Shown: piece after piece, positions 6 through 1,872 of the stretch
Numbering within the stretch: the stretch's first letter is position 1
Layout: every line of letters begins with the position of its first letter
IMG/VR virus record: IMGVR_UViG_3300047481_000521
Span: 1-32,305 of that record
DNA from: a virus
Reading direction: 5' to 3' (one strand)
DNA length: 32,305 bases
Made by a program: the position numbers and the translations under genes
The notes under the pieces: generated by a model
Databases searched by the model: none
Seen by the model: the letters and a program-made list of their open reading frames with translations, nothing else
Told to the model about the DNA's origin: nothing

Positions 6-497
6 ATGGTAGAATGTTATTCTATTCAAGAGACTTCTCTTACGAGAGTAATGAGAAAGTCTCAAAAAGGTGGAATGGCAATTATGTCTGCCCAGAGGGG
101 GGATAAATCTAAAAAAGAAAACAAAGCCCGCTCAAAGCAACTTGAAAAAGATGTAAGGGGTGCTGGTCTTCCTGGACCTACCAAAGTTTCTGGACGATAT
201 ACAGAAAATCCTGGAACTTCGCAAGAAAAGAAAGTGGGTGAAAAATCTCATATCATTACTCCTGGTAAGAAAGGTAAGAGAAAGTTTAAAAAAGCAATTG
301 AAAAACTTGGTAAAAAGTATGACCAAGACTCTGTATTGATTCAACGCAAAAAAGGTGGAGAATCAACTCTTAAAGGAACTTCAAAAACTTCTTGGCCTGG
401 AAAGGGAAAGAATGTTAAAATAGGAAGTATGAAACCTGGTAGAACTGGTGAGTTTGATACCAAAGTTAAGAACAAAACATTTACAGTTGAAAAATGA
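6..497 (+). CDS. DUF3293-like protein, probably 5'-truncated
   Basis: Basic, Lys-rich protein of at least 163 residues. The segment around residues 25-118 follows the DUF3293 pattern as I remember it: an AIMSAQRG stretch in place of the usual I-x-TA-x-NP, then an N-x-x-R-x-x-x-L helix, a Gly-Arg strand, an E-K-S-H strand and a final K-Y-x-Q-D-S-V strand. The biochemical role of that family is not known to me. No ribosome binding site can be seen because the ATG lies 6 bases from the window edge and the frame is open upstream, so the true start may be outside. The stop overlaps the next start (ATGA), so the pair is probably cotranslated. Related proteins occur in cyanophages. The family assignment is inference; the reading frame itself is secure. 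Confidence 0.7.
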   Translation: MVECYSIQETSLTRVMRKSQKGGMAIMSAQRGDKSKKENKARSKQLEKDVRGAGLPGPTKVSGRYTENPGTSQEKKVGEKSHIITPGKKGKRKFKKAIEKLGKKYDQDSVLIQRKKGGESTLKGTSKTSWPGKGKNVKIGSMKPGRTGEFDTKVKNKTFTVEK

Positions 498-679
498 AAT
501 CTAAATTCCCATTTGACCACGTAGTCAAATCTGATACAAAAGAAGTATGGGTAAAATGTGATAGTGCAATCACTGCGATGGGGATTGGGACTATCGTCAA
601 ACAATTCTATCCAGGATACACTACTCATATTGCGAGTGAGAATTATCTGAATGAGTTGAGAAACCAGTTGGCCAACTGA
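494..679 (+). CDS. small hypothetical protein (61 aa)
   Basis: ORF of 61 codons starting in an ATGA overlap with the DUF3293-like gene, which supports translation by coupling. I do not recognise a family. The product is soluble-looking with no signal peptide or membrane segment; it has a short central hydrophobic stretch (AMGIGTIVKQF) and an acidic/amide C-terminus. It is the last gene before the repeat-containing promoter of cobS. Confidence 0.6.
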   Translation: MKSKFPFDHVVKSDTKEVWVKCDSAITAMGIGTIVKQFYPGYTTHIASENYLNELRNQLAN

Positions 680-681
680 CC

Positions 682-710
682 ACTCTGCCCCAACTCTGCC
701 TCACTCTGCC
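682..710 (+). repeat. three phased direct repeats ACTCTGCC
   Basis: Three copies of ACTCTGCC start at 682, 693 and 703, so they are spaced 11 and 10 bases apart, about one DNA helical turn. They lie just upstream of a TATAAT box at 713-718, where a -35 element would be. This is what a binding site for a dimeric or multimeric activator or repressor looks like. No other copy was noticed elsewhere in the window. Confidence 0.7.
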
Positions 711-712
711 CT

Positions 713-718
713 TATAAT
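713..718 (+). promoter_or_regulatory. cobS promoter -10 box (TATAAT) without -35
   Basis: A perfect TATAAT lies 24 bases ahead of the cobS start. The expected -35 position (about 690-695) does not resemble TTGACA and is occupied by the ACTCTGCC repeats, which suggests an activator-dependent promoter of the T4 middle type. Expected start of transcription is about 725. No Shine-Dalgarno sequence is evident before the cobS ATG. Confidence 0.55.
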
Positions 719-741
719 GGCTTCAGTGAAAAACACACATC

Positions 742-1872
742 ATGTCCCGCATTCAAATGACCGACGACCAAATTCTTGCCGATCTCAAAACTACTTTTGG
801 TGTAGAATTTACCGCTGCTGATGTTCGCGGTTTTTGTGCATCAAAAGGAGTTTCATACCCGACTGTTACCAAGCGTCTAGATCAGTTCAAAGTTGGTCGT
901 GGTAAGTGGAATTTGGAAGTCACTCAACAAAAAGTTGATGAAATTGAACGCACTTTCCAAGCTCCCGCTGTAATCCCTCCTGTGGAACAAAACCTTATTC
1001 CCGATAAAGATGATACCTTCGTCAAGTTTGGTAATTTCAACGATATTAAAAAAATTATTGAATCCCGTCTTTTCTATCCTACGTTCATTACGGGTCTTTC
1101 GGGTAATGGTAAAACGTTCAGTGTTGAGCAAGCATGTGCCCAACTTAAGCGCGAACTAATTCGTGTAAACATTACCATCGAGACTGATGAGGATGATCTG
1201 ATCGGCGGTTTCCGTCTGGTCAATGGTGAAACTGTTTGGCATAACGGCCCTGTGATTGAAGCACTGGAGCGCGGCACTGTCCTGCTGCTAGATGAAATCG
1301 ACCTTGCTTCTAATAAGATTCTGTGCCTGCAATCTGTTCTGGAAGGTAAGGGTGTCTTCCTGAAAAAGATTGGTCGCTTTGTGAAACCTGCCGCAGGTTT
1401 CAACGTTGTTGCCACCGCAAACACTAAGGGCAAAGGTTCTGACGACGGTCGCTTTATCGGCACCAACGTGCTCAACGAAGCATTCCTTGAGCGTTTTCCT
1501 GTGACTCTGGAGCAGGAATATCCCACTGCTAAAATTGAGTGTCGCATTTTGCAAGGTGTTGCTAAATCTGTTGGTGTCGATGACTTTGCTTTCTGTGAGC
1601 GACTTGCAGATTGGGCTGATATCATTCGTAAGACATTCTATGATGGTGGCATTGAAGAAATCATCAGCACCCGCCGCTTGGTTCATATCATTCGTGCTTA
1701 CAGCATCTTTGGTAACAAGGCAAAAGCAATTGATGTTTGTACGTCAAGATTTGATGATGAGACGAAGATGGCTTTTATTGAACTCTACGATAAAGTGGAT
1801 GCTGACTTTCAGATGCCTACCGAAGTCTCAAATGAAGTTCTCCCACACATTGACCAACCCGCTCCTTTCTGA
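742..1872 (+). CDS. cobS: CobS-like AAA+ ATPase (cobaltochelatase subunit family)
   Basis: 376-aa MoxR/CobS-class AAA+ ATPase. Walker A is GLSGNGKT at about residues 118-125, Walker B LLLDEID at 181-187, and a sensor/arginine-finger region with FLERFP lies near residue 248. The N-terminal ~80 residues look like a helical adaptor domain. In bacteria CobS works with CobT and CobN to insert cobalt in aerobic cobalamin synthesis; cyanomyoviruses carry only cobS, and what the phage protein does is unsettled. No cobT or cobN is seen here. The gene is visibly richer in G+C than its neighbours (bases 1201-1260 are 30/60 G+C), with many C-ending codons, which fits high expression or acquisition from a host. 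The downstream promoter overlaps its last codons. Confidence 0.9.
   Translation: MSRIQMTDDQILADLKTTFGVEFTAADVRGFCASKGVSYPTVTKRLDQFKVGRGKWNLEVTQQKVDEIERTFQAPAVIPPVEQNLIPDKDDTFVKFGNFNDIKKIIESRLFYPTFITGLSGNGKTFSVEQACAQLKRELIRVNITIETDEDDLIGGFRLVNGETVWHNGPVIEALERGTVLLLDEIDLASNKILCLQSVLEGKGVFLKKIGRFVKPAAGFNVVATANTKGKGSDDGRFIGTNVLNEAFLERFPVTLEQEYPTAKIECRILQGVAKSVGVDDFAFCERLADWADIIRKTFYDGGIEEIISTRRLVHIIRAYSIFGNKAKAIDVCTSRFDDETKMAFIELYDKVDADFQMPTEVSNEVLPHIDQPAPF

What the first reader, a model, noticed from the sequence alone, without database searches (positions are those of the whole stretch)
682..718. Helically phased triple repeat replaces the -35 box of the cobS promoter
Three copies of ACTCTGCC at 11- and 10-base spacing end 2 bases before a perfect TATAAT. 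They occupy the same DNA face and the -35 position. T4 middle promoters use a MotA box plus -10 (established); no such tandem array is known to me in cyanophages, so this could be a distinct activator or repressor site controlling an auxiliary metabolic gene.
Basis: partly seen in the sequence, partly recalled or inferred. Interest (0 to 1): 0.62.

Follow-up and report, generated by a model that had tools for sequence, protein, structure and literature searches.

The report
Cyanophage promoter with triple repeat box
Viruses of ocean and lake cyanobacteria share a kind of gene switch in which a mirror-image DNA site sits at a fixed distance from the start box, and in many of them the usual recognition box between the two is replaced by three copies of an eight-letter word, most often in front of the cobS gene; no protein that reads it is known yet.

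Summary
In detail: ACTCTGCC at 682-689, 693-700 and 703-710, then TATAAT at 713-718. No such triple repeat arose in 200 shuffles. It is not unique to this contig. In six cyanophage genomes plus the window, palindrome/-10 pairs peak at gaps 34 (52) and 35 (24) against about 6 at other gaps. In many promoters the slot holds a hairpin, often a terminator; in a subset it holds the three-octamer array. Of 124 distinct array promoters found in viral contigs, 112 have an ORF just downstream, and 51 of those are cobS. 31 isolate records carry one array each. None was found in 386 cyanobacterial genomes. In the cobS tree the array has been gained or lost at least 4 times while the 34-bp frame stayed. 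Best reading: an activator-dependent promoter for host sigma70 RNA polymerase, with palindrome and array as protein sites replacing the -35 box. The binding proteins are unknown. Doron et al. 2016 may describe the palindrome element; that paper was not available.

The parts
665..678 (.). Palindrome CAGTTGGCCAACTG (upstream dyad; class consensus TGTGNCAGTTNNNNAACTGNCACA), centred about -53 from the predicted start site
   Evidence: Direct reading; unselected left half-site conserved in 56 aligned array promoters (C 1.65, A/G 1.16, T 1.33 bits); distance to -10 fixed at 34-35 bp across genomes
682..689 (+). Array unit 1, ACTCTGCC
693..700 (+). Array unit 2, ACTCTGCC (overlaps the place of a -35 box)
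   Evidence: unit 2 was never selected for in set C yet is conserved
703..710 (+). Array unit 3, ACTCTGCC
713..718 (+). -10 box TATAAT
   Evidence: constant part of the class
725..725 (+). Predicted transcription start (A of CAGT), not measured
   Evidence: Conserved CA at 6-7 bases after the -10 (C 43/56, A 45/56); inference
742..1872 (+). cobS (CobS/MoxR-like AAA+ ATPase), the gene driven by this promoter
   Evidence: PHROG 249, E 5e-137; tblastn up to 78% to isolate cyanophages
494..679 (+). Small upstream ORF (61 aa); its last codons and stop overlap the palindrome
   Evidence: no PHROG match

Best explanation
The site is the promoter of cobS and a member of a cyanophage promoter class: a palindrome centred near -53, a 34-35 bp slot, and a sigma70-type -10 box, with no -35 box. 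Shown by sequence comparison: the architecture, the fixed spacing, the recurrence of the array, its orientation and placement before genes, and its absence from the host genomes searched. Inferred: a dimeric protein, probably phage-encoded, binds the palindrome; a second protein (or a multimer of the same one) binds the three octamers, which fall about one helical turn apart; together they stand in for -35 recognition and recruit the host RNA polymerase to TATAAT, with transcription starting near 725. Where the array is absent a hairpin, often a terminator, commonly fills the same slot, so the array is best read as an extra control module on a basic palindrome-dependent promoter, most often used for cobS.
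For: Triple repeat 1 in window, 0/200 shuffles. Array scan of viral contigs: 89 loci, most with palindrome, 2-3 units and -10 on one strand. Selecting only on palindrome half plus unit 1, 76 of 90 have a -10 at 33-35 bp, with units 2 and 3 conserved. 112 of 124 distinct array promoters have an ORF starting 27-35 nt after the -10 (90% against 25% at random sites). Over 116 arrays the palindrome-to-(-10) gap is 34 in 89, 35 in 24, 33 in 3, although unit spacing varies. Gap census in six genomes and the window: 52 at 34, 24 at 35, about 6 elsewhere. Hosts: no array promoter of the class in 386 cyanobacterial genomes; palindrome at only 2 places, without a -10, in 79 genomes of one order. cobS tree: array state changes at least 4 times on well-supported branches. 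No -35.
Against: No transcript, binding or mutation data. The binding proteins are unidentified. Most genomes that have the array hold only one, which is odd for a dedicated regulator. Many cobS promoters do without the array, so it is not essential for cobS. Activation and repression cannot be separated by sequence.
Confidence: 0.62

Rival explanations
1. The array is an operator: a repressor covering about -20 to -43, next to the -10, shuts the promoter off at a set time, while the palindrome is the activator site (or the reverse).
For: Unit 3 ends 1-2 bp from the -10 (92 and 24 of 116), where a bound protein would block RNA polymerase; the array is an optional addition to a promoter that exists without it.
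Against: There is no -35 box under the array to block; the slot must still let polymerase bind in array and hairpin forms alike. Not decisive.
Confidence: 0.2
2. The array is only a length-keeping filler of the 34-bp slot, chosen because it is C-rich and unstructured; nothing binds it, and only the palindrome and the -10 matter.
For: The slot tolerates very different sequences as long as its length is 34-35.
Against: The same octamer recurs three times before at least 24 gene families, with some linker bases more variable, and degenerate copies still match most positions. A neutral filler would not stay this exact.
Confidence: 0.12
3. The array is an iteron-like replication origin that happens to adjoin an AT-rich -10.
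For: Phased direct repeats beside an AT-rich hexamer; one array in each isolate record found; near a GC-skew maximum in Syn9 and G001.
Against: Co-oriented with and 27-35 nt before a start codon; some contigs carry two (L036, L078, L371, L472); not at a skew extreme in S-CAM3; same frame as non-array promoters.
Confidence: 0.03
4. An ordinary host-type sigma70 early promoter with a weak -35; the repeats are incidental.
For: Perfect TATAAT; the literature says sigma70-like motifs occur upstream of early genes in some cyanophages (PMC2984593).
Against: No -35-like hexamer at 16-18 bp; the conserved fixed-distance palindrome and repeats are not part of a sigma70 promoter.
Confidence: 0.03

Closest known systems
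Early-gene regulatory element of cyanophage Syn9 (Doron et al. 2016, ISME J 10:1437; recalled from memory, paper not held)
   Same: Cyanophage-wide promoter element, conserved among T4-like cyanophages; possibly the same thing as the palindrome-34-TATAAT frame.
   Different: Identity could not be checked. Whether that paper describes the octamer array is unknown; the only cyanophage text hit for CTCTGCC in the open library is a PCR primer.
T4 middle promoter (MotA box plus -10, with AsiA)
   Same: Activator site in place of -35, sigma70 -10 kept.
   Different: One 9-bp MotA box near -30 against a palindrome near -53 and three octamers; no MotA in the cyanophages tested.
P2/P4 late promoters (Ogr/delta; from memory)
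   Same: Palindrome centred near -55, no -35, host polymerase.
   Different: TGT-N12-ACA consensus not met here; no Ogr/delta protein found in 10 cyanophages; P2 has no octamer array.
Cyanobacterial Pho box (CTTAN7CTTA, 11-bp period, as used in PMC3037559)
   Same: Tandem direct repeats about one helical turn apart upstream of a -10.
   Different: Sequence unrelated; a host phosphate-regulon site, while this array is found only in phages here.

Membership tests
Palindrome-34-TATAAT cyanophage promoter class (defined here) | CAGTTNNNNAACTG-like dyad | tested here: met
   CAGTTGGCCAACTG, 665-678
Palindrome-34-TATAAT cyanophage promoter class (defined here) | 33-35 bp from AACTG to a TATAAT/TATACT -10 | tested here: met
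   34 bp in the window
T4 middle promoter (MotA/AsiA) | MotA box (TGCTT core) near -30 | tested here: not met
   No TGCTT in 660-712 by direct reading
T4 middle promoter (MotA/AsiA) | motA in the phage | tested here: not met
   MotCF absent from 10 cyanophage records, present in T4 at 7e-71. The window's own genome is a fragment, so tested in relatives only
T4 middle promoter (MotA/AsiA) | asiA in the phage | tested here: inconclusive
   No match in 10 records but no positive control rang
Host-type sigma70 promoter | -35 TTGACA 16-18 bp from -10 | tested here: not met
T4-type late promoter | TATAAATA | tested here: not met
   TATAATGG at 713-720
Cyanobacterial Pho box | CTTAN7CTTA | tested here: not met
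   Direct reading of 660-720
P2/P4 Ogr-delta late promoter | TGT-N12-ACA near -55 | tested here: not met
   Direct reading
P2/P4 Ogr-delta late promoter | Ogr/delta zinc-finger activator | tested here: not met
   PF04606 absent from 10 cyanophage records (relatives, not the window's own genome); control rings in E. coli
Syn9 early regulatory element (Doron et al. 2016) | Same motif and early expression | not testable with these tools
   Paper not held

The most novel reading that the evidence does not exclude
Cyanophages use an undescribed two-part activator system in which a phage protein on a fixed-distance palindrome and a second protein on a three-octamer array together replace -35 recognition, and the array is a swappable module exchanged between promoters by recombination.
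Probability: 0.4. Interest if true: 0.72.

Novelty: new variant of a known kind. Interest (0 to 1): 0.58.

Why it matters
How T4-like cyanophages switch on early and middle genes without MotA and AsiA was called unclear in 2010 (PMC2984593). A promoter class with an exact geometry, shared by many cyanophages and not found in the host genomes searched, points to phage-encoded transcription factors, gives predicted start sites that existing transcript data can confirm, and offers bait DNA for finding the proteins.

Tried and rejected
Host regulator: disfavoured for lack of array promoters or palindrome promoters in the cyanobacterial genomes searched. MotA/AsiA, Pho box, Ogr/delta: see membership test. 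Divergent use of one palindrome (P-SSM2 68.8 kb, G001 67.1 kb) is compatible with chance and not claimed. GC-skew origin test was inconclusive. Literature searches did not find a text description of the array; motif logos in figures cannot be searched. The first regular expression in Syn9 missed promoters because the palindrome is degenerate; replaced by the scored scan.

Full report
Observation. The window has ACTCTGCC at 682-689, 693-700 and 703-710 and TATAAT at 713-718. A triple exact 8-mer with gaps of 1-5 bases occurs once in the window and in none of 200 dinucleotide-preserving shuffles. The downstream gene is cobS, a MoxR-like AAA+ ATPase (PHROG 249, E 5e-137). The -35 position holds CCAACT, and no sigma70 pair is found. 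The window is a 32-kb viral contig with no more of its genome on hand.

The array recurs in cyanophages. A scan for ACTCTGCCNNNACTCTGCC returned 89 viral stretches. Some are chance coding matches, but most show one architecture: palindrome, two or three octamers, one or two bases, TATAAT or TATACT, then a start codon. Because that scan selected for two octamers, I made two less biased sets. Selecting only on the palindrome's right half plus unit 1, 76 of 90 distinct sequences have a -10 at 33-35 bp, with units 2 and 3 conserved, although neither was asked for. Selecting only on unit 3 plus TATAAT gave 117 distinct sequences, of which well over half show units 1 and 2; most of the rest are chance coding matches. 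The left half of the palindrome, never selected, is conserved.

Geometry. In 116 arrays the distance from AACTG to the -10 is 34 (89), 35 (24) or 33 (3). The commonest unit spacing is 12 and 10; the window and its sisters L010 and L035 have 11 and 10 with one more base before the -10, so the total stays at 34 (that call kept units with at most two mismatches, so its conservation figures lean high). Measured to the predicted start at 725, the palindrome is centred near -53.

It is a promoter. Of 124 distinct array promoters, 112 have an ORF starting just downstream (90% against 25% at random sites), typically 27-35 nt after the -10. Fifty-one are cobS; the others fall into at least 23 families, among them small unknown ORFs, a 717-aa protein and a family beginning MQNKHQEHPEDTIL. 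Isolates carry it too: 31 records, one place each, among them S-CAM4, ACG-2014j and e, S-CAM3 and Sf-CH11 at or near cobS, and Syn9 and Syn10 before gp61.

The wider class. cobS loci chosen as the closest relatives have no array (0 of 73 distinct upstream regions with two octamers). Most keep the palindrome and the 34-bp distance, with a terminator-like hairpin in the slot. A search of 22 records for palindrome half and -10 found matches in 18 of them, well above the reversed-pattern control. In six genomes plus the window, a looser palindrome paired with a -10 gives 52 pairs at gap 34 and 24 at gap 35, against about 6 at each other gap from 18 to 52. Stronger members cluster in one part of S-SRM01, P-SSM2, S-SSM7 and G001, with others near cobS. 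In 57 matched promoters, nearly all without the array, the slot folds better than shuffles (mean z -1.8; 53% under -1.5), while array slots do not fold at all.

History. In a tree of 145 CobS proteins the array/no-array label needs 9 changes, at least 4 forced by well-supported branches, against about 45 for shuffled labels. The window, L010 and L061 form an array clade nested among 16 non-array rows. So the content of the slot has been exchanged repeatedly while its length stayed. Recombination between promoters that share palindrome, -10 and leader is the likely route (inference). The sample was partly chosen for the array, so the number of swaps is a lower bound for these sequences and not a rate.

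Hosts. No array promoter of the class was found in 386 cyanobacterial genomes; the one match lacks the architecture. The palindrome CAGTTNNNNAACTGNCACA occurs at two places in one of 79 genomes of a cyanobacterial order, both without a -10. The regulators are therefore probably phage-encoded (inference).

Mechanism. Shown: architecture, spacing, recurrence, orientation, absence from the searched hosts. Inferred: an activator dimer on the palindrome; a protein on the octamers; joint replacement of -35 recognition; start near 725. The array could also be a repressor site. MotA is absent from ten cyanophage records while T4 gives 7e-71; AsiA gave no match but had no positive control; Ogr/delta is absent with a working control. 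The literature agrees that marine T4-like cyanophages lack MotA and AsiA and that their early and middle control was unclear (PMC2984593; PMC5780444).

Novelty. From memory, Doron et al. 2016 reported a new regulatory element for early genes in Syn9, conserved among T4-like cyanophages. The palindrome frame found here may be that element; the paper was not held, so I cannot claim the frame as new. I found no text description of the octamer array or of the array/hairpin alternation in the open library, which does not show that none exists. I file it as a new variant of a known kind: an activator-dependent phage promoter without a -35 box.

Noticed in passing
L092-L171, upstream of cobS; also P-SSM2, S-SRM01, S-SSM7: Promoters without the array often carry a hairpin, in many cases an intrinsic terminator, in the 34-bp slot between palindrome and -10: a terminator built into a promoter of fixed length.
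   Followed up: partly
L172:44804-45466 (Syn9 gp61): The annotated start of gp61 (44804) lies inside the array promoter; an in-frame ATG at about 44855, after the predicted transcription start, is the likelier start.
   Followed up: no
L183:1184-1300 (S-CAM3, AOV58660): An annotated minus-strand hypothetical protein overlaps the array promoter and the start of cobS; probably not a gene.
   Followed up: no
S-SRM01 at about 52.0, 52.4, 56.8 and 61.5 kb (L565, L566): Four promoters of one genome share a nearly identical slot (AAGGGCACTTGAAAACAGGTGCCCTTT), a second recurrent slot sequence besides the octamer array.
   Followed up: no
P-SSM2 68762/68767 and G001 67066/67071: One palindrome with a -10-like hexamer at 34-35 bp on both sides, possibly divergent promoter pairs; compatible with chance.
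   Followed up: no
window:25757-29715: Eight of the window's nine tRNA genes lie in this stretch (Arg, Gly, Asn, Val, Ser, Pro, Ile, Met).
   Followed up: no
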